Positions 2 to 8,923 of a stretch of 8,923 bases of DNA are shown in pieces. Source of the stretch: JBGPLH01 sp041486365 [NCBI: Thermodesulfobacteriota bacterium] (GTDB lineage: Bacteria; JAUYMQ01); the NCBI GenBank assembly GCA_041486365.1, contig JBGPLH010000116.1, positions 1-8,923 on the forward strand, written 5' to 3'. The position numbers and the translations under genes were made by a program. The notes beneath the pieces were generated by a model. That model saw nothing but the letters and a program-made list of their open reading frames with translations, ran no database searches and was not told where the DNA came from. Every line of letters starts with the position of its first letter. Position 1 is the first letter of the stretch.

Positions 2-574
2 GTCATGGCCGCCGTGGTGATCCTCTCGATCGCGCTCGTCTCGCTCCTGAATGCGAACAACCAGAGCGTCCTCCTCAAGGGGCGGGCGCAGAACGTGACG
101 ACGGCCACGCTGCTCGCCCGCGAGAAGCTCTCGGAGATCATGATCGATCCGAGCAGCCTGGAGGAGAGCCAGAAGGGCGACTTCGGCGATCGCTTCCCGT
201 ACTGGCGCTGGGAAGTGACGGCCGAGGACGAGGACGTTCCCTTCGACTTCGGAGGCTTCTCGTCCGATCAGGAACGCCGCAGCCAGGGAGGCGCGGGCGG
301 GGCCTCCGCGGGCGCGAAGCGCGCGGATACGACCGGCGCGAAGGAAGAGCAACCGGGGACGAGGAAGATCACGCTGACGATCTCCTGGCCCGAGGGAACG
401 AAGGATACTTCCTTCACGCTCACCGAATACGTGGCGCGCCTCGTGGCGCTCTCGTCCCCGACCGGGGCCGGCGACACACCCGGGGGAAACACCGGCTCGC
501 TCTCCTCCCCGGCCACGAGCGAGAAGAAGGCGCTCCCGACCGCGACCCCGGCGCCGTCCAGCGGGTCGCGATGA
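2..574 (+). CDS. gspI: Type II secretion minor pseudopilin GspI (5' partial)
   Basis: Minor pseudopilin of the T2SS, part of the GspI-J-K complex that caps and primes the periplasmic pseudopilus. The frame is open to the window edge and the first codons read VMAAVVILSIAL, which continues a prepilin motif (GFTLxEVM...). The ATG at 5 is therefore internal and the leader plus cleavage site lie upstream of the window. The hydrophobic N-helix is followed by the GspI-like stretch LLNANNQS...TTATLLAREKLSEI. A beta-rich globular part follows (PYWRWEV; KITLTISWPEG; TEYVARLVAL). Odd points: a Gly/Ala/Lys-rich low-complexity insert at about visible residues 84-120, and a Pro/Ser/Thr-rich tail over the last 40 residues. 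These make it about 190 aa plus the missing N-terminus, where GspI is usually about 120-130 aa. The stop overlaps the gspJ start (ATGA), so translation is probably coupled. GspI identity is supported by position before gspJ and by the N-terminal pattern. Confidence 0.88.
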   Translation, partial: VMAAVVILSIALVSLLNANNQSVLLKGRAQNVTTATLLAREKLSEIMIDPSSLEESQKGDFGDRFPYWRWEVTAEDEDVPFDFGGFSSDQERRSQGGAGGASAGAKRADTTGAKEEQPGTRKITLTISWPEGTKDTSFTLTEYVARLVALSSPTGAGDTPGGNTGSLSSPATSEKKALPTATPAPSSGSR

Positions 575-1416
575 AGCGGAACGGATTCACGTTGATCGAA
601 GTGCTCGTCTCCCTGGTGATCAGCGCGATCGTCCTCGCCGCGGTATACGCGTCCTTCACGGCGGTGATGGAGACGCGCCGCCGGGTGGAGGCGGGATCGA
701 ACATCGACATGGAGGCGAGATTCGTCCTGACCCGCCTCTCGCGCGAGATCGAGAGCGCGTTCCTTGTGAAGCGGGCGCAGGACGCGCCGCCTGAGTCCCG
801 TTACACGGTCTTCTCCGGATCGCAGTCGGAGGTCGCCGGCCTCCCGGGGGACCGGGTCTCGTTCAGCGCCTTTGCGCACACGAAGCGCGGCGTGGACGCG
901 AAGGAGTCGGATCAGGCGGTCATCGAATACACGACGGAGGAAAACGAGCCCGGCCCGGAGGACCTCGGCGGAGCCGGTGCCGCCCGGGGACAGGATGACG
1001 GCGTGCCGAGCCTGGCGCTGCTGCGCCGCGAGTGGCGGCGGATCCCCTCTCCCCGGGACACGCAGCGGATGGAGCCGAAGGCGATCGCGCTGGTGGACCG
1101 CATCCGGGGTTTCCGCGTGCGCTTCCGCGACGCGGAAGGCGAGTGGTCCGAGCGCTGGGACTCCACCGAGGTCCGCACGCTCGACCTGCTGCCGACCGCC
1201 GTGGAGATCACCCTCACGCTGCGGGACGGCAGCGGACGCGACCGCGATTACGTGACGGTGGCCTCCCCGCGAATCGCCCCCTTCGAGCGCCAGACGCCCC
1301 AGGGCGCAGATCAGGGAACCGCGCTTACCACGCAAATGGGTGAGACGGCGACGGGCGACGGGACGGCGCAGAAGCCCGCGGGTAGCCCGGCCACCCGTGG
1401 CGGGGGCGGGCGATGA
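571..1416 (+). CDS. gspJ: Type II secretion minor pseudopilin GspJ
   Basis: Minor pseudopilin that packs with GspI and GspK at the pseudopilus tip in the periplasm. The start is fixed by a short basic leader MKRNG and a textbook type IV prepilin site: cleavage after Gly5, mature Phe6, Glu10 at mature position +5, then a hydrophobic helix to about residue 30. GspJ family signs are the conserved segment after the helix (METRRRVEAG...ARFVLTRLSREIES, residues 33-62) and the C-terminal half with LVDRIRGFRVRF (174-185) and LPTAVEITLTL (207-217), the usual closing strands. At 281 aa it is longer than typical GspJ (about 200 aa). The excess is an acidic/Gly linker near 122-145 and a Gln/Gly/Thr-rich tail after about residue 240. 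It overlaps gspI and gspK by 4 nt (ATGA) on both sides, as expected inside one operon. Confidence 0.93.
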   Translation: MKRNGFTLIEVLVSLVISAIVLAAVYASFTAVMETRRRVEAGSNIDMEARFVLTRLSREIESAFLVKRAQDAPPESRYTVFSGSQSEVAGLPGDRVSFSAFAHTKRGVDAKESDQAVIEYTTEENEPGPEDLGGAGAARGQDDGVPSLALLRREWRRIPSPRDTQRMEPKAIALVDRIRGFRVRFRDAEGEWSERWDSTEVRTLDLLPTAVEITLTLRDGSGRDRDYVTVASPRIAPFERQTPQGADQGTALTTQMGETATGDGTAQKPAGSPATRGGGGR

Positions 1417-2549
1417 GGTTCCGCGACGAGGGCGGCGTGGCGCTGCTCATGGTGCTCCTGGTCATCTCGCTGCTCACGGCGGTGGTCGTCGACTTCAGCT
1501 TCCAGACCCGTCTGGACGCGCGGATCGCCGCGAACGTGCGGGATGATCTCCGGGCGGAGACGATCGCGCGCTCGGGCTTCCAGATGGCGCTCGCCGTGCT
1601 GAACAAGGACGCCCTGTCGGACAAGCCGAGCACCCCCGCGGCGACGAACGAGGGCGCGGTGAGCGAGCTGCTCAACCAGGCGCGCCGCCAGGCGTCCCAG
1701 GCACAGCAGGGAGAGGGAAAGGCGCAGGCAAACGCGGGCGTCGATTCGCTCATGGATCCCTGGGCCCGGATGGACTATCTGCGCCTTCCGCTCGGGCGGG
1801 GGGAGTCGCTTGACGTGCGGGTGACCGATCTCGCCGGCCTGATCGATCTGAACGCGATCATCACGGTGAACCAGGCGGGCCAGCCGTCGCTCAACCAGCC
1901 GGTTTTCGACGAGCTCGTGATGCTGATCACCGCCGCGCGCGAGGCGCAGCATCTGGGGAAGGAGGACACCGGCGGGGAGGAGATGAGCCCGGAGGAGATC
2001 GCCTACGCGATCGCCGACTGGGTCGATCCGGACGAGATCCGGATCGCCGACGGCGGCTTCGAGGACGAATCCTACAACAGCCTCCCCGAGCCTTACTCCT
2101 CCAAGAACGGCCCTTTCGACTCGGTCGCGGAAGTCCAGCTCGTGGCCGGCGTGGACGACAGGCTCTACGAGGCGATCCGGAAGTACCTGACGGTGTATCC
2201 CTGGACCGGCGGAGGGGCGATCAACCCGAACACGGCGCCGGCCGGCGTGCTCGCCTCGATCCGGGTGCGGGAGAACGCCGCGATCGAGGCGCCGGAGCCC
2301 CTCACCCAGGACCGGGTCCAGGCCATCCTCGACGCGCGGGAGAAGGGGACCGTCCTGGGCAGCGACCAGGACCTGAAGGAGCTGCTCGATCTCGATGCGG
2401 CGGCGGTTTTCAGCCCGTCGCTGGTCTACGGGGGCAACACCTTCCAGGTGGACGCATCCGCCACCGTGAATGGAACGCTTTGCCGCCTGCACGCCGTGGT
2501 GGACCGCGGCGGGGACAAGCCGACGATTCTCTACTGGCGGATCGACTGA
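1413..2549 (+). CDS. gspK: Type II secretion minor pseudopilin GspK
   Basis: Largest minor pseudopilin, placed at the tip of the pseudopilus. Residues 1-28 (MRFRDEGG, then VALLMVLLVISLLTAVVV) form a prepilin-type leader and helix. The processing site is probably after Gly8, and as usual for GspK the Glu normally found at mature position +5 is absent. After a Gln/Ala-rich linker (about 85-108) comes the GspK body: VTDLAGLIDLNA (137-148), IAYAIADWVDPDE (196-208), the metal-site-like GGFEDESYNSL (214-224), FDSVAEVQLVAGVDDRLYEAIRKYLTVYP (235-263) and INPNTAPAGVLASI (270-283). This helix-hairpin-helix-like order is characteristic of the family. Length 378 aa is normal. The start overlaps the gspJ stop by 4 nt. 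The next gene, gspL, begins 67 nt downstream, the widest gap in this operon segment. Confidence 0.95.
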   Translation: MRFRDEGGVALLMVLLVISLLTAVVVDFSFQTRLDARIAANVRDDLRAETIARSGFQMALAVLNKDALSDKPSTPAATNEGAVSELLNQARRQASQAQQGEGKAQANAGVDSLMDPWARMDYLRLPLGRGESLDVRVTDLAGLIDLNAIITVNQAGQPSLNQPVFDELVMLITAAREAQHLGKEDTGGEEMSPEEIAYAIADWVDPDEIRIADGGFEDESYNSLPEPYSSKNGPFDSVAEVQLVAGVDDRLYEAIRKYLTVYPWTGGGAINPNTAPAGVLASIRVRENAAIEAPEPLTQDRVQAILDAREKGTVLGSDQDLKELLDLDAAAVFSPSLVYGGNTFQVDASATVNGTLCRLHAVVDRGGDKPTILYWRID

Positions 2550-2556
2550 AAGAACC

Positions 2557-2565
2557 TGATAAGAT
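2557..2565 (+). promoter_or_regulatory. Possible extended -10 element between gspK and gspL
   Basis: TGATAAGAT just after the gspK stop fits an extended -10 (TGn-TAnnnT, four of six in the hexamer). It lies in the only sizeable gap of the gsp cluster and about 45 nt upstream of the gspL start region. I see no good -35 at the right distance, so this is a weak candidate for an internal promoter and may be chance. Confidence 0.2.
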
Positions 2566-2616
2566 GGCGCCGGTCTCCCGCGGGGGCGGGGGCCGATCGT
2601 CCACAGGGAGACTCTC

Positions 2617-4227
2617 TTGTACGGTCAAGTGCTCGGACTGGACATCGGTAGCTGGAGCTTGAAGGGCGTCGTGGCGCGCGGCGGACTCGGCCGATTCGAA
2701 ATCCTTCGCTACACGGGTGAGGTCCTCCGCGAGGAAGGCGCCTCGGAGATCGGCGATCCGGCGGCCGCCCTCTCCCACGCCCTGTCCCTCTTCCGCGACA
2801 TCCACCGCCTGGCCGGGATGGATCCGATCTGCACCCTGCCGGGTCCCATGACCTCCACCCGCCGGCTCTCCCTCCCCTTCTCCGATCCGAAGAAGATCCG
2901 CCAGACGGTCCCCTTCGAGGTGGAGTCGCAGGTTCCCTTCGGGATCGACGAGATCGTGCTCGACTACCAGGTACTCGAGACGGCGTCCGAGGGGGCCGAC
3001 GTGCTGGTGGGCCTGGCCCGGCGCGAGCTCATCGCGCGGCACCTCCGGCTGCTCGAGGACGCGGGCCTCGATCCCCGGATCCTCGAGCTGGACGCGCCCT
3101 CGCTCGCGAACCTGGCCCCCTTCATCGAGAACGCAGACGGCTTCGCGTTCCTCGCCGACGTGGGCCACGCGAAGACCGCGCTGTGCGCCCTCAGCGGACG
3201 CAAGCTTCACTCGGCGCGCACGCTGCCCTTGGGGGGCCTCGCGCTCACGCTTGCGCTCGCCGACGACCTGCGCGTCGAGCGCGGGGAAGCCGAGCGGCGA
3301 AAGCACGAAGCGGGGCTCGATCTGCTTCACCCTTCGCACCCGGCCTTCGCCCGCGCGCTGGACCGGTTCGTCCGCGAGATCGACCGCACCTTCACCGCGC
3401 CCGAGAACGCCCGCATCGGGCGCCCCGACCGCATCGTCCTGTTCGGCGGGAGCGCGCGCATGCGGGGGCTCTCGGAATTACTGCAGGAGCGGCTCGGCAT
3501 CCCGGTGGAGGCGCCCGTCTTCCGCGCCGATGAGCGTTTCGCCTGGCGCCCGAACGCGGAGGAGGCGCTCGTGGGGGCCGCCGCGCTCGCCCTGGCGCTT
3601 CGCGGCGTCCTGCGTCCGCCGCTGTCTCGCCTCAACCTCCGCCAGGAGGAGTTCGCCTACAGGCGTGATTTCACCGTGCTGCGCCGCCGGTTCCTGCCGA
3701 CCGTCTCGATCGCGGGGGCGCTGCTCCTCCTGGTCCTGGTGAACATCGGCGTGATCATGGTGCAGGACCGGCGGCAGATAGCGAAGCTCGACGCGCAGAT
3801 GGCGGAGATTTTCCGCCAGACGCAGCCGGGCGTGACCCGGATCGTGGACCCCCTCTCGCAGATGCGCTCCGGTGTCTCGGAGATGCAGCGTCGCGCGCAG
3901 GCGCTGGGGATTTACGGCGCAAACGTCACGGCGCTGGGCGTGCTGCGGGAGATTTCCAGCCGGGTGCCAACGGGGGTTGACGTCACGATCACGGATCTCT
4001 CGATCGACGAGGCCCGCATCCGCGTGCACGGCAGCACGCCGAGCTACGAGCTGGTAGACCGGCTGAAGTCGGATCTCCAGCAGGTCTCCTTCTTCCGCGA
4101 AGTGAACGTGGCCGACGTGAAGACGGATCGCGACGGAGGGAAGAGTTTCAATCTCACGATCACGATGGGGACGCCGGGCGCCCCCGTCGCGCCCGCGGGC
4201 ACGGCCCCGCGGCGCCGGGGGGCGTGA
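2617..4227 (+). CDS. gspL: Type II secretion inner-membrane protein GspL (PilM-like + PilN-like)
   Basis: Inner-membrane platform protein that links the cytoplasmic secretion ATPase GspE to GspM and the pseudopilus. Start is TTG at 2617, with GGGAG at 2606-2610 six nt upstream; it puts the first actin-fold strand right at the N-terminus. Residues 1-330 are an actin/PilM-like domain: phosphate-1 motif GLDIGSWSLKGV (7-18), VPFEVESQVPFGIDEIVLDYQVL (98-120, very PilM-like), phosphate-2-like DVGHAKTAL (181-189) and adenosine motif LFGGSARMRGL (275-285). A linker LSRLNLRQEEFAYRR (336-350) precedes one transmembrane helix (about 359-382). Then come a coiled segment and a periplasmic ferredoxin-like GspL-C/PilN-like domain (about 440-518). 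Length 536 aa is a little longer than common GspL. gspM follows after 1 nt. By sequence alone it could be called a PilM-PilN fusion, but its position between gspK and gspM makes GspL the better name. Confidence 0.93.
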   Translation: MYGQVLGLDIGSWSLKGVVARGGLGRFEILRYTGEVLREEGASEIGDPAAALSHALSLFRDIHRLAGMDPICTLPGPMTSTRRLSLPFSDPKKIRQTVPFEVESQVPFGIDEIVLDYQVLETASEGADVLVGLARRELIARHLRLLEDAGLDPRILELDAPSLANLAPFIENADGFAFLADVGHAKTALCALSGRKLHSARTLPLGGLALTLALADDLRVERGEAERRKHEAGLDLLHPSHPAFARALDRFVREIDRTFTAPENARIGRPDRIVLFGGSARMRGLSELLQERLGIPVEAPVFRADERFAWRPNAEEALVGAAALALALRGVLRPPLSRLNLRQEEFAYRRDFTVLRRRFLPTVSIAGALLLLVLVNIGVIMVQDRRQIAKLDAQMAEIFRQTQPGVTRIVDPLSQMRSGVSEMQRRAQALGIYGANVTALGVLREISSRVPTGVDVTITDLSIDEARIRVHGSTPSYELVDRLKSDLQQVSFFREVNVADVKTDRDGGKSFNLTITMGTPGAPVAPAGTAPRRRGA

Positions 4228-4228
4228 C

Positions 4229-4876
4229 GTGGCGATCAAGCGGGCGGCGGAGGTGCTTGAACAGGTCCGGGGGGCGCAGGCGAAGGCGGCCGAGTTCCTC
4301 GACAAGCGCACGCCGCGCGAGCGGCAGATGCTCGCGCTCATGGCCGTCGCGGTCGGTCTGTGGCTGCTCTACTGGCTCGTGCAGGGGCTGATCCTGGCTC
4401 CGATGGAGGGTGCGAAGCGCACGATCGCGGCCAGGGAGGTGGCGCTGCGGCAGATGCGGATCCTCCAGTCCGACTACCGGCGCGTGCAGGGGCAGGTCTC
4501 GCTCCTGGAGTCGCAGATCCGCTCCGGCCAGCAGGGCAACGTGCTCTCGATGCTCGAGGAGATGGCCAACGAGGTCCAGATCAAGGACAAGATCACCTCG
4601 ATGGACCCGCGCAGCACGCCGCCCAACGACGTCTATCGCGAGAGCGTGATCGAGGTGCGACTCCAGCAGGTGAACCTGAAGCAGCTCGTCGACTACCTGT
4701 TCAAGATCGAGAACTCGGGCTCGTTCCTGAAGATCAAGCGCCTGCGACTGAAGACGCGCTCCGACGACCCGGGCCACCTCGACGTGACCTTCCGCGTCTC
4801 GAGCTTCGAGCCGATCAACCCCGCGCCCGCGGGGGCCCCGGGCGCGCCCCGCCCGCCCGTGGAGGCGGCGCGCTGA
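4229..4876 (+). CDS. gspM: Type II secretion inner-membrane protein GspM
   Basis: Bitopic inner-membrane protein that dimerises with GspL in the T2SS assembly platform. GTG start at 4229, one nt after the gspL stop, with a G-rich tract in the end of gspL serving as ribosome site. Residues 1-30 are cytoplasmic and basic, containing the motif KRTPRERQML (26-35) that precedes the membrane helix in this family. Residues about 35-55 form the transmembrane helix (LMAVAVGLWLLYWLVQGLIL). Residues 60-98 look like a periplasmic coiled coil, and 104-195 a ferredoxin-like alpha/beta domain (VIEVRLQQVNLKQLVDYLFKI at 140-160; DVTFRVSSF at 185-193). A short Pro/Ala-rich tail follows. Length 215 aa is somewhat longer than the usual 160-180 aa. 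It is the last gsp gene on this strand here. The next gene converges on it with only 13 nt between stop codons. Confidence 0.9.
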   Translation: MAIKRAAEVLEQVRGAQAKAAEFLDKRTPRERQMLALMAVAVGLWLLYWLVQGLILAPMEGAKRTIAAREVALRQMRILQSDYRRVQGQVSLLESQIRSGQQGNVLSMLEEMANEVQIKDKITSMDPRSTPPNDVYRESVIEVRLQQVNLKQLVDYLFKIENSGSFLKIKRLRLKTRSDDPGHLDVTFRVSSFEPINPAPAGAPGAPRPPVEAAR

Positions 4877-5978: not shown

Positions 5979-7202
5979 TCAGACCCGATCCAGGCTCTGC
6001 TTCAGGTCCGCGACGATGTCCTCGACGTTCTCGATGCCGATCGAGAGACGCACAAGGGCGTCGGCGATGCCGAGATCGCGCCAGCCCTCGGGCCCGAGCT
6101 CGTAGTAGGACATGAGCGCCACGTTCTCGACGAGACTCTCCACACCCCCAAGGCTCGGGGCGATCTTCGGTATCCGCAGCCGGTCGATGAAGGCGTTGGA
6201 GTCCGCGAAGGTGCCGTCGATCTCGAACGATACGACGCCCCCGAACCCGTGCATCTGATCGCGCGCCACCTTGTAGTTCGGATGGCTCTCGAGCCCCGGA
6301 TAGTACACGCGCTTCACCTTCGGGTGCGTCTCCAGGAACCGCGCCACCGCCATCCCGTTCTCGTTGTGCCGCGCCATCCTGAGCTCGAAGGTCTTGAGCC
6401 CGCGCAGGAGCAGGTACCCCGCGTGCGGATCGAGCACGCAGCCGAGGATCCCCTGCAGGTCCCGGATCCCGGCGACCAGCGGCCCCGGCCCCGTGATGGC
6501 GCCCGCGAGGAGATCGTTGTGCCCCCCGAGGTACTTCGTGCCGCTGTGGATCACGAGGTCCACGCCGAAGTCCAGCGGCCGCTGGTTGTAGGGCGTGGCA
6601 AAGGTGGAGTCGATCAGCACCTTCACGCCCTTCTCACGGCCGATCTTCACCACGGCCGGGAGGTCCACGACGCTCAGGTAGGGGTTCGTCGGCGACTCGG
6701 TGAGAATGAGCCGTGTCTCGGGGCGGATGAGCGTCGCGATCTTCCGGTAGTCGCTCGGCTGGACGAGCGAGGTCTCCACGCCGTAGCGCGCCAGCAGCGT
6801 GGTGCAGAACTGCCGCGTACGCCGGTAGCACTCGTCGGTGAGAATCATGTGGGCGCCGGGCGCGAGCAGCGCGAGCAGCGTCGTGGTGACCGCGCTCATC
6901 CCCGACGGGAAGACGAGCGCGTCCTCCGCATGGTCGAGCGCGGCAAGCTTCGACTCCGCGGCACGCAACGTCGGGTTGCCGTAGCGGCCGTACTCGTCCC
7001 GGACGATCCGGTTTTCCTTGAAGTCGAGGAGTTCCGCCGAGTCGCGGAACGTGTAGGTGCTGGTCTGGACGATGGGCTGCGTGAGGGAGCCGTAGGGCTT
7101 CTCGGCCTCCTCCCCCGCGTGGACCGAGCGGGTGCCGAGCCCCGGGTCTCCGGGTCGGCGTTCGGGCGGGTTGCCATTTCCCTGGGATGGCCTGTCGGAC
7201 AT
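5979..7202 (-). CDS. Cystathionine gamma-synthase-like PLP enzyme (Cys/Met metabolism family)
   Basis: Cytosolic fold-type I PLP enzyme of the Cys/Met transsulfuration family. The most likely reaction is gamma-replacement of an activated homoserine by cysteine to give cystathionine, on the way to methionine. Family hallmarks (407 aa, normal length): YGRYGNPT (71-78; Tyr71 and Arg73 bind the neighbouring subunit's PLP phosphate), SGMSA (100-104), DECYRRTRQF (123-132; Tyr126 at the position that stacks on PLP), Asp198 in VLIDSTFATP (pyridine nitrogen), the PLP lysine Lys223 in SGTKYLGGHND, and Arg385 in LVRLSIGIE (substrate carboxylate). CYRRTR, LGGHND, HPKVKRVYYPGLESHP and IAPSLGGVESL...MSYYELG resemble plant cystathionine gamma-synthase. 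The first 22 residues are Pro/Gly-rich and outside the fold. Start at 7202 has a GAGG seven nt upstream. It lies 310 nt downstream of nadE, beyond a candidate regulatory leader. Gamma-lyase or O-acyl-homoserine sulfhydrylase activity cannot be excluded. Confidence 0.9.
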   Translation of the reverse strand: MSDRPSQGNGNPPERRPGDPGLGTRSVHAGEEAEKPYGSLTQPIVQTSTYTFRDSAELLDFKENRIVRDEYGRYGNPTLRAAESKLAALDHAEDALVFPSGMSAVTTTLLALLAPGAHMILTDECYRRTRQFCTTLLARYGVETSLVQPSDYRKIATLIRPETRLILTESPTNPYLSVVDLPAVVKIGREKGVKVLIDSTFATPYNQRPLDFGVDLVIHSGTKYLGGHNDLLAGAITGPGPLVAGIRDLQGILGCVLDPHAGYLLLRGLKTFELRMARHNENGMAVARFLETHPKVKRVYYPGLESHPNYKVARDQMHGFGGVVSFEIDGTFADSNAFIDRLRIPKIAPSLGGVESLVENVALMSYYELGPEGWRDLGIADALVRLSIGIENVEDIVADLKQSLDRV

Positions 7203-7311
7203 GATGCGCCTCGTGCATGAACGGCATCCCCGCCGCGCACGCTCATGCGCCGCGCGGAGCGGATCGCCGGTTGAACGGGCCGACCTGTTGAGCCGGAGCG
7301 ACCGGGTCGGT

Positions 7312-7332
7312 CCGGGCGAACAGCTCGCCCGG
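7312..7332 (-). other. GC-rich hairpin in the leader of the transsulfuration gene
   Basis: Perfect 8-bp stem CCGGGCGA / TCGCCCGG with a 5-nt loop, 110 nt upstream of the start codon at 7202. No T-run follows on the minus strand, so it is not an intrinsic terminator. The rest of 7203-7311 is G+C-rich and can form more pairs, such as GGTCGC with GCGATC on the minus strand, and CCGCGC 7233-7238 with GCGCGG 7252-7257. It may simply be structured 5' UTR. Confidence 0.35.
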
Positions 7333-7357
7333 GGGCCGGAGGGGCGCGCAAGGGGCT

Positions 7358-7400
7358 AAAAAAAGGCCCCGTGCTGCAAAGCAAGAGGCGTCTGACGGGG
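7358..7400 (-). terminator. Candidate intrinsic terminator/attenuator between nadE and the transsulfuration gene
   Basis: On the minus strand CCCCGT (7400-7395) pairs with ACGGGG (7372-7367), six bp, followed by CC and seven T (7364-7358). The 22-nt loop contains a small TGC-TTT-GCA hairpin. The loop is longer than ideal, but the G+C stem plus the clean U-tract make it credible. It lies 155 nt before the start codon at 7202, so it could end read-through from nadE, end a small RNA started at about 7470, or act as an attenuator. Confidence 0.5.
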
Positions 7401-7470
7401 TGTCTCAAGACCTCAGCTTCTTAGCACTTTTTATAGTGGCTGCAAGATGCCCCAAATCAATCCACTTGGC
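7358..7470 (-). ncRNA. Candidate small RNA or regulatory leader, family unknown
   Basis: Inferred transcript of about 110 nt from a promoter just after nadE to a U-tract. Composition is about 51% G+C over 7371-7470, clearly below its surroundings, and no frame on either strand looks like a protein. On the minus strand I see CAGC/GCTG (7442-7439 with 7417-7414) stacked on CACT/AGTG (7438-7435 with 7428-7425) around an A-rich loop. There is a small GTC-TTGA-GAC hairpin (7411-7402), and a possible closing helix GGGG/CCCC (7453-7450 with 7400-7397). That closing helix uses the same C-run as the terminator stem, so the two exclude each other. AGTGG (7466-7462) can also pair with CCACT (7439-7435). 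I do not find SAM-I, T-box, TPP, cobalamin, 6S, tmRNA, SRP or RNase P signatures. It may be a leader of the downstream gene rather than a free RNA. Confidence 0.35.
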
Positions 7471-7475
7471 CTTCG

Positions 7476-7503
7476 AGCCTATCACGGGAGGCAGGGGTGT
7501 CAA
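7476..7503 (-). promoter_or_regulatory. Sigma-70-type promoter downstream of nadE
   Basis: On the minus strand a consensus -35 TTGACA (7503-7498), a 16-nt spacer and TAGGCT (7481-7476) preceded by TGA make an extended -10 (TGnTAnnnT). The -35 starts 9 nt after the nadE stop codon, so transcription would begin near 7469. It is the best promoter I can find in the window, and it suggests that the transsulfuration gene and/or an intergenic RNA is transcribed separately from nadE. Confidence 0.55.
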
Positions 7504-7512
7504 CAGGTAGTT

Positions 7513-8923
7513 TTACCCCAGCCGATACCTCGCCGCGATCGGGTACCGCCGCCCGATGCCGAAGGCCTTGCCGGTCACCCGGAGGCCCGGTGCGGCCTGC
7601 TGCCGCTTGTACTCGTTCGTGCGGATCATCTTGAAGACGCGCTCCACGATCGACCGATCGAACCCGCGCTCGACGATCTCCTCCGCCGGCAGGCTCTCCT
7701 CGATCGCGGCCTCGAGGATCGGGTCGAGCACCTCGTAGGGCGGGAGCGTGTCCTGGTCGGTCTGGTCGGGCCGGAGCTCGGCCGACGGCGGCTTCGTGAG
7801 GCAGGCCGCCGGGATGACCTCCCGCTCGCGGTTCACCTCCCGCGAGACGGCGTACACGGTCGTCTTGGGGAGATCGTTGATCACCGCCAGCCCGCCCGCC
7901 ATGTCGCCGTAGAGCGTGCAGTAGCCCACCGCCAGCTCGCTCTTGTTCCCCGTCGAGAGCACGAGATGGCCTTGCTTGTTCGAGAGCGCCATCAGGATGT
8001 TCCCCCGGATGCGCGCCTGGAGGTTCTCCTCCGTCGCGTCGGCCGGGAGACCCCCGAATTGCGGCTGGAGCTCGTCGAGGAACGTGCGGAAGGTCTTCTC
8101 GATCGGGATCACCTGGTAGTGGATCCCCAGGTTCTCCGCGAGCGCCTTCGCGTCGGTGAGGCTTCCCTGGGACGAGTAGGCCGAGGGCATCGAGACGCCC
8201 CAGACGTTCCCGGGGCCGAGCGCGCGGGCCGCGATGACGGCCACCAGCGACGAATCGATCCCGCCCGAAAGCCCGACGACGGCCGAGCGGAAGCCGCACT
8301 TGTGCGCGTAGTCGCGCGTGCCCAGAACGAGCGCTTCGAGCAGGCTCTTCTCGGTGCTCCCCAGCGGGCGGCGCATGTCGCCTATTCCCGTGTCGAGATC
8401 CCAGAGGATCAGGTCCTCCTCGAAGGCTGAAGCGTGCGCGGCCACCCGGCCTCGCCGGTCCACGGCGAAGCTTTCGCCATCGAAGACGAGGCTGTCGTTC
8501 CCGCCGACGAGGTTCACGTACACCGACGGGATTCCGTGCTCCCGCGCCACGCGCTCGAAGATGCGCTGCCGGTGGGAGAGCTTTCCCACCTCGAAGGGCG
8601 AGGCGGAGAGGTTCAGGATCACCTCCGCGCCCTGCCGGGCCAGCTCCGCCACCGGATCCTTCCGGTACAGTCTCCGTCCCGAGAAGCTCTCCTCCGCCCA
8701 GGCGTCCTCGCACACCGTGACACCCAGCCGCCGTCCGCGAAACTCCTTCACCCGCACCGTGGTGGCCGGCTCGAAGTAGCGCACCTCGTCGAAGACGTCG
8801 TAGTTGGGCAGGAGGCACTTCGCGGTGAGGGAGCGGACGCGGCCGCCGTCGAGCAGCGCGGCCGCGTTGAGCACGCGGCGTCCGGGCTGGCGTGGATTCG
8901 GCACGGCGACTCCGACGAGGACG
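7513..8923 (-). CDS. nadE: Glutamine-dependent NAD+ synthetase NadE (5' partial)
   Basis: Last step of NAD biosynthesis: amidation of nicotinic acid adenine dinucleotide to NAD+ with ATP, using ammonia released from glutamine. The frame is open to the window edge (VLVGVAVPNP...), so the GTG at 8904 is internal and roughly 80-100 N-terminal residues, including the catalytic Glu, are missing. Numbering from the Val at 8904: nitrilase/glutaminase domain to about 165, with catalytic Lys29 in AKCLLPNYDVFDE and nucleophile Cys65 in GVTVCEDAW. Then the synthetase domain with the ATP pyrophosphatase P-loop GLSGGIDSS (211-219), RGNILMALSN (300-309), STGNKSELAVGY (317-328), YGDMAGGLAVINDLPKT (332-348) and an end rich in basic residues (NEYKRQQAAPG...). 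The two-domain form means glutamine, not only free ammonia, is the N donor. The stop is TAA, followed by the promoter described at 7476-7503. Confidence 0.96.
   Translation of the reverse strand, partial: VLVGVAVPNPRQPGRRVLNAAALLDGGRVRSLTAKCLLPNYDVFDEVRYFEPATTVRVKEFRGRRLGVTVCEDAWAEESFSGRRLYRKDPVAELARQGAEVILNLSASPFEVGKLSHRQRIFERVAREHGIPSVYVNLVGGNDSLVFDGESFAVDRRGRVAAHASAFEEDLILWDLDTGIGDMRRPLGSTEKSLLEALVLGTRDYAHKCGFRSAVVGLSGGIDSSLVAVIAARALGPGNVWGVSMPSAYSSQGSLTDAKALAENLGIHYQVIPIEKTFRTFLDELQPQFGGLPADATEENLQARIRGNILMALSNKQGHLVLSTGNKSELAVGYCTLYGDMAGGLAVINDLPKTTVYAVSREVNREREVIPAACLTKPPSAELRPDQTDQDTLPPYEVLDPILEAAIEESLPAEEIVERGFDRSIVERVFKMIRTNEYKRQQAAPGLRVTGKAFGIGRRYPIAARYRLG

What the first reader, a model, noticed from the sequence alone, without database searches (positions are those of the whole stretch)
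7358..7512. Low-GC intergenic element with its own promoter, competing helices and a U-tract: candidate sRNA or terminator-type riboregulator
Seen: TTGACA/16 nt/extended -10 right after nadE, then about 110 nt of roughly half G+C in a GC-rich genome, no ORF, ending in a GC stem plus seven T on the minus strand. The closing helix (7453-7450 with 7400-7397) and the terminator stem (7400-7395 with 7372-7367) compete for the same C-run. A second exclusive pair exists (7466-7462 with 7439-7435 versus 7438-7435 with 7428-7425). Inference: a transcription-control leader or stand-alone sRNA. The downstream gene is in methionine/cysteine synthesis, where ligand-sensing leaders are common, yet I recognise no known SAM, SAH or T-box signature.
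Basis: partly seen in the sequence, partly recalled or inferred. Interest (0 to 1): 0.62.

Follow-up and report, generated by a model that had tools for sequence, protein, structure and literature searches.

The report
SAM-II riboswitch before a methionine gene
This stretch is most likely an ordinary RNA switch of the known SAM-II class, which senses the cofactor S-adenosylmethionine and, when there is plenty of it, stops transcription of the methionine-synthesis gene behind it.

Summary
The element is real: a SAM-II riboswitch (minus strand, about 7469-7358) with an intrinsic-terminator platform, upstream of a metZ/metB-like gene (7202-5979). Rfam's SAM-II model matches the whole aptamer at 31.0 bits, E 4e-4, below its gathering score of 44, so the default scan is empty. 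A profile from four relatives without the window finds it at 44.2 bits; the best of 200 shuffled windows reaches 9.1. P1 and pseudoknot P2 are present; P1 covaries over 42 distinct rows. All 20 loci fetched by the aptamer model alone from the phylum of L017 (Latescibacterota) have a metZ relative next downstream. The pseudoknot's 3' strand is also an antiterminator strand: predicted terminator pairing rises from about 0.1 to above 0.8 when the aptamer is taken out of the fold. SAM-II before metZ is published for Sinorhizobium (PMC9373788), so this is a new member of a known kind. SAM binding and termination are inferred, not measured. Side lead: a compact SAM-II-like motif before planctomycete metZ genes, without a SAM-riboswitch match in the five loci scanned with Rfam.

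The parts
7498..7503 (-). -35 hexamer TTGACA
   Evidence: sequence, coordinates; promoter scan lists no site
7476..7481 (-). -10 hexamer TAGGCT (3 of 6), 16-nt spacer; start expected near 7469, about 3 nt before P1 (inferred)
   Evidence: sequence
7462..7466 (-). SAM-II stem P1, 5' strand AGUGG
7453..7458 (-). conserved GAUUUG of loop L1 (third strand of the SAM-II triplex, by analogy)
7442..7451 (-). pseudoknot P2, 5' strand GGCAUCUUGC
7435..7439 (-). SAM-II stem P1, 3' strand CCACU
7415..7425 (-). pseudoknot P2, 3' strand GC(U)AAGAAGCU
7411..7427 (-). antiterminator 5' strand, contains the whole P2 3' strand
7371..7388 (-). antiterminator 3' strand, overlaps the terminator hairpin
7366..7389 (-). 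intrinsic terminator hairpin GCCUC-U-UGCU(UUGC)AGCA-C-GGGGC
   Evidence: part of it
7358..7364 (-). U7 tract of the terminator
   Evidence: sequence
5979..7202 (-). regulated gene: PLP-dependent trans-sulfuration enzyme, metZ/metB-like, 407 aa
   Evidence: best NCBIfam match 374.8 bits; none of the 25 models shown (of 50 matching) reaches its curated cut-off, so the exact reaction is open

Best explanation
The minus-strand leader 7469-7358 is a SAM-II riboswitch that turns off the downstream metZ/metB-like gene by premature transcription termination. Shown from sequence: the P1 and P2 elements of the SAM-II pseudoknot, the conserved core letters, homologous leaders, and a mutually exclusive terminator and antiterminator. 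Inferred: with little S-adenosylmethionine, 7427-7411 pairs with 7388-7371 (antiterminator) and RNA polymerase reads on into metZ. When S-adenosylmethionine is plentiful it binds the pseudoknot, P2 captures 7425-7415, the antiterminator cannot form, the hairpin 7389-7366 folds, and polymerase stops at the U tract 7364-7358, leaving a leader RNA of about 112 nt.
For: Rfam SAM-II RF01726 matches full length 1-60 at 31.0 bits, E 3.8e-4, and SAM_alpha RF00521 at 18.4 bits over the same place. A profile without the window finds it at E 8.5e-14; the best of 200 block-shuffled windows scores 9.1 bits against 44.2. L017 and L008, two of the four leaders in that profile, pass Rfam's own SAM_alpha cut-off (44.0 and 39.7 bits against 36). 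Covariation on 42 distinct rows, window included: 32 cells changed on both sides against 10.6 in shuffles, score 0.209 against 0.095, 0 of 500 shuffles as high for either; slid controls at most 0.058. P1 has double changes in 4 of 5 pairs and 99.5% of cells paired. 25 of 48 hits, window included, have a metZ orthologue downstream; 20 of the 20 loci fetched by the aptamer model alone in the phylum of L017 do. Terminator pairs have probability 0.11-0.13 in the free leader and 0.83-0.99 with the aptamer removed; the same with P1 enforced and the P2 strands masked, for starts 7470 to 7467. Outer antiterminator pairs 0.83-0.85 in the free leader.
Against: The match is below Rfam's gathering scores and the default scan finds nothing. 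The covariation lies mostly in P1 (27 of 32 double-changed cells); the core of P2 (UUGC with GC-AA) does not vary, so it says nothing for or against the pseudoknot. On the count of further pair types, 16 of 500 shuffles reach the observed value. C7446-G7420 is C-G in only 1 of 42 rows, and 39 rows do not pair there. The alignment was fitted to a model that held P1. If the transcript began at 7471, the masked fold would give the outer terminator pairs only 0.21. The free-to-terminator switch shows in only 9 of 29 distinct leaders that had a T run; in 17 the terminator is predicted stable in both states. The two closest aptamers, L001 and L002, have no terminator by my rule. The promoter is not supported by the scan. 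0 of 20 loci from the phylum of L022 have a metZ match. No binding or transcript data exist.
Confidence: 0.93

Rival explanations
1. It is a SAM-II aptamer but control is mainly translational or Rho-dependent, and the terminator is of minor use.
For: The stretch between T run and start codon is long (155 nt), L001 and L002 carry the aptamer without a terminator by my rule, and a published SAM-II leader acts on translation (PMC9373788 passages).
Against: The P2 3' strand ends about 210 nt before the start codon, too far to mask its ribosome site directly (inference); a hairpin with U7 sits behind the aptamer and overlaps the antiterminator; 42 of 48 hits, some near-identical, have a terminator-like site within 220 nt.
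Confidence: 0.06
2. A stand-alone small RNA with an ordinary terminator, unrelated to metZ control.
For: A promoter-like sequence and a terminator bound a roughly 112-nt transcript (sequence).
Against: Aptamer core, P1 covariation and position before metZ in 25 of 48 hits point to a cis-acting leader.
Confidence: 0.03
3. Only the terminator of nadE; the aptamer resemblance is chance or a decayed relic.
For: It starts directly behind the nadE stop codon, and the Rfam score is below cut-off.
Against: Leave-one-out score 44.2 bits against at most 9.1 in 200 shuffles; the conserved core blocks are intact.
Confidence: 0.02

Closest known systems
Sinorhizobium meliloti metZ SAM-II riboswitch with sRNA RZ (PMC9373788; abstract and passages seen)
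   Same: SAM-II aptamer, intrinsic terminator predicted on SAM binding, metZ downstream, an RNA of about 100 nt detected.
   Different: Another lineage, which I could not place; the window's aptamer scores under Rfam's cut-offs; no expression data here.
SAM-II metA element, Rfam SAM_alpha RF00521 (PMC1273637; passages seen)
   Same: P1 plus pseudoknot P2, terminator between P2 and the gene, methionine gene; a promoter-like sequence just before P1.
   Different: Loop L1 is 2 nt longer (AUUGAUUUG) and L3 2 nt shorter than in L017 and L008; 18.4 bits against a cut-off of 36.
Rfam SAM-II long loop RF01726 (listed in PMC2864571 for Bacteroidetes and marine sequences, passage seen)
   Same: Best Rfam match, full length, 31.0 bits.
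   Different: One of the model's inner loop pairs is not a standard pair here; below the cut-off of 44.
SAM-V riboswitch (PMC6061858, PMC2704228; passages seen)
   Same: H-type pseudoknot with a closely similar binding core to SAM-II.
   Different: SAM-V is described as translational with a 2-bp P2a over the Shine-Dalgarno; here a terminator follows, and no SAM-V match was listed.

Membership tests
[quoted passage not shown]
   P1 7466-7462/7439-7435, P2 7451-7442/7425-7415; covariation mainly in P1, P2 core invariant
SAM-II riboswitch class | conserved core letters GAUUUG, UUGCA, GCUAA in order | tested here: met
   present in the window and conserved in most rows of the alignment
SAM-II riboswitch class | lies before a methionine or SAM synthesis gene | tested here: met
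   metZ/metB-like gene at 7202-5979; 25 of 48 hits before a metZ orthologue
SAM-II riboswitch class | promoter elements a few nt before P1 (described as usual) | tested here: inconclusive
   TTGACA-16-TAGGCT, 9 nt between -10 and P1, but the scan lists no promoter
SAM-II riboswitch class | binds SAM and rejects SAH | not testable with these tools
   needs in-line probing or calorimetry
Rfam RF01726 and RF00521 automatic assignment | score at or above the gathering cut-off (a detection threshold, not a biological feature) | tested here: not met
   31.0 against 44 and 18.4 against 36; the related leaders L017 and L008 do pass RF00521, L001 and L002 do not
Transcription attenuator | mutually exclusive terminator and antiterminator, the latter sharing a strand with the aptamer | tested here: met
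   pair probabilities; computed only, and dependent on a start at 7470 or later
SAM-I (S box), SAH, T-box | Rfam match | tested here: not met
   none at gathering nor at E up to 10 in 7200-7560

The most novel reading that the evidence does not exclude
The terminated leader of about 112 nt, made when SAM is plentiful, may also act in trans as a small RNA that tunes other sulfur genes; a role in trans has been raised for the Sinorhizobium SAM-II leaders (PMC9373788, passage seen). Nothing here tests it.
Probability: 0.05. Interest if true: 0.45.

Novelty: new member of a known kind. Interest (0 to 1): 0.2.

Why it matters
It explains the leader and predicts how the gene is controlled. It shows SAM-II leaders before metZ in lineages known from metagenome assemblies, where default Rfam cut-offs can miss them. 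Relatives of the same gene carry SAM-I, SAM-II or a compact SAM-II-like motif upstream, so one gene family has several RNA sensors, presumably for one ligand, that can be compared directly.

Tried and rejected
Whole-genome context of the window: not held. Taxonomy: the NadE part is at most 59% identical to relatives in the sampled phyla of both G029 (its locus L022 is labelled uncultured Acidobacteria) and G023 (its locus L045 is labelled Deltaproteobacteria), and 34-41% in the best matches of five genomes of the phylum of the Entotheonella record L001. I do not assign a phylum. Conserved nadE-metZ neighbourhood: no metZ in the nadE loci L083-L107, which have short flanks; of the 80 metZ loci only L055 has a (distant, 27%) NadE relative in reach. 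Model R2 in 282 genomes of the phylum of G023: 0 with a match; only 16 candidates per genome were scored in the rows shown, so this is weak. R2 in the phylum of L017's genome: 25 of 64; in that of L022's genome: 32 of 297. In the latter the downstream genes were not identified; none of the 20 loci taken (L128-L147) has a metZ match at E 1e-8 within at most 1.5 kb. Viral contigs with the window-type pattern: 0. Fold-energy z-score: uninformative. My first constrained fold (start 7471) did not show the terminator; the repeat with five starts shows it for 7470-7467 but not 7471. Model R1 had P1 in the wrong register by my mistake; it was used only, and I rebuilt it as R2. No covariation claim rests on R1. 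Papers: searches in an open-access library; I claim no absence from print beyond those listings.

Full report
What is there. On the minus strand the nadE-type gene stops at 7513 and a metZ/metB-like gene starts at 7202. Between them lies a lower-G+C stretch (54% at 7380-7499). A default Rfam scan of the window gives nothing. With relaxed filters on 7200-7560 the best match among 4227 families is SAM-II (RF01726), full length, 31.0 bits, E 3.8e-4, and the second is the sister family SAM_alpha at 18.4 bits over the same bases. Both are below the curated cut-offs of 44 and 36.

Is it real. I fetched 80 metZ-like loci from named genomes (the best 80 of 586). A motif search with the SAM-II core found the same kind of leader upstream of the gene in L001 (Entotheonella), L002 (a proteobacterium MAG) and L017 (Latescibacterota), and Rfam found L008 (Latescibacterota). 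L017 and L008 pass the Rfam cut-off of SAM_alpha (44.0 and 39.7 against 36); L001 and L002 stay below that of SAM-II (41.5 and 37.1 against 44). A profile built from these four, without the window, finds the window at 44.2 bits, E 8.5e-14, at 7469-7407; the best score in 200 block-shuffled windows is 9.1 bits.

Structure. P1 is 7466-7462 with 7439-7435. P2 is 7451-7442 with 7425-7415: C7442-G7425, G7443-C7424, U7423 unpaired, U7444-A7422, U7445-A7421, C7446-G7420, U7447-A7419, A7448 opposite A7418, C7449-G7417, G7450-C7416, G7451-U7415 (from the sequence, columns). With model R2 I collected 48 hits from 45 sources, 42 distinct rows. On them 32 cells have changes on both sides against 10.6 in shuffles; the covariation score is 0.209 against 0.095, no shuffle of 500 reaches either, and slid structures reach at most 0.058; on further pair types 16 of 500 shuffles reach the observed 14. 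P1 carries most of this (4 of 5 pairs, 27 of the 32 cells, 99.5% of cells paired). In P2 four pairs never vary, three have some double changes, one varies on one side, and one (C7446-G7420) is C-G in the window alone. Related sequences can inflate such counts, and the alignment was fitted to a model that contained P1.

Switch. In the free leader 7469-7358 the outer antiterminator pairs (7427-7411 with 7388-7371) have probability 0.83-0.85, and the terminator 7389-7366 has 0.11-0.13. With the aptamer region removed, which imitates the SAM-bound state, the terminator rises to 0.83-0.99. With P1 enforced and the P2 strands masked it is the same for starts 7470, 7469, 7468 and 7467; with a start at 7471 the outer terminator pairs reach only 0.21, because the first four bases pair with the foot of the terminator. 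Of 29 distinct leaders with a T run, 9 including the window show the switch (free at most 0.6, bound at least 0.75), 17 have a terminator stable in both states, and 3 fit neither; 12 further rows had no T run by my rule and 7 repeated another row. So the two-state design is clear in the window but not general by this crude measure.

Neighbours. A metZ orthologue lies downstream in 25 of 48 hits, the window included. Four of these loci (L001, L002, L008, L017) were fetched through metZ, so they do not count as independent. The 20 loci taken from the phylum of L017 were found by the aptamer alone, and 20 of 20 have metZ next downstream; two of them, L110 and L115, appear to be the L017 and L008 loci again, and several others are near-identical. 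Of 20 loci from the phylum of L022, 0 have it. 42 of 48 hits have a terminator-like site within 220 nt by my own rule; L001, L002, L127, L132, L144 and L146 have none. Some other metZ relatives carry SAM-I instead: 5 of 18 loci scanned.

What is known. SAM-II was described with P1, a pseudoknot, usually a promoter just before P1 and in many cases a terminator (PMC1273637, passages). [quoted passage not shown] In S. meliloti the metZ SAM-II leader is predicted to terminate transcription and an RNA of about 100 nt is seen (PMC9373788, abstract and passages). The window fits this in what I could test, apart from the Rfam score and the unsupported -10 box. I therefore call it a new member of a known kind, with SAM binding and termination inferred.

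Noticed in passing
L050, L052, L055, L060, L062, L064, L066, L067, L072-L078, L080 (e.g. L055:3701-3748); L159-L165: Compact SAM-II-like motif before planctomycete metZ-family genes: same core letters (GAUUUG or GAUUUA, UUGCA, GCUAA), P1 of about 3-5 bp and only about 2-6 nt between P1 and P2 (9 in the window, 11 in L017). The 16 named loci were fetched through metZ, so their position is by construction; but 7 of 7 compact hits found by pattern alone in 392 genomes of the phylum (some are the same genomes as named loci) also precede metZ, and the 4 longer-loop hits do not. Reversed pattern: 0. P1 covariation is mixed: 10 double-changed cells against 3.9 (0 of 500), but pairs with such changes 2 against 1.8 (395 of 500), and 6 of 16 rows do not pair at the outermost position. 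No Rfam SAM-riboswitch match in the 5 loci scanned with relaxed filters. Model R3 found 7 of 246 genomes, 4 compact and 3 longer-loop, with few candidates scored. Only 3 papers in the library hold SAM-II, riboswitch and Planctomycetes together; the published candidate Rhodopirellula-1 could not be compared.
   Followed up: partly
L136, L138, L139 (about 1359-1575, minus strand): Two SAM-II hits in tandem in three loci from the phylum of L022. Tandem SAM-II is a published arrangement (PMC9481103, 44 examples; passages seen).
   Followed up: partly
L006, L007, L010, L011, L013: metZ-like genes of three Chloroflexi-type genomes, one Myxococcales-labelled genome and one unclassified bacterium carry a SAM-I riboswitch upstream, so different SAM sensors serve the same gene family.
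   Followed up: no
window 571-4873: Type II secretion genes on the plus strand: gspJ-like, gspK, a GspL/PilM-like protein and a gspM-like gene; gspK and gspL pass NCBIfam cut-offs, the gspJ and gspM models do not.
   Followed up: no
L044:3705-3760: A Myxococcales-labelled metZ leader with a long uninterrupted P2 (GGCACUUGC with GC-U-AAGUGCC) but a poor P1 (read); not tested further.
   Followed up: no
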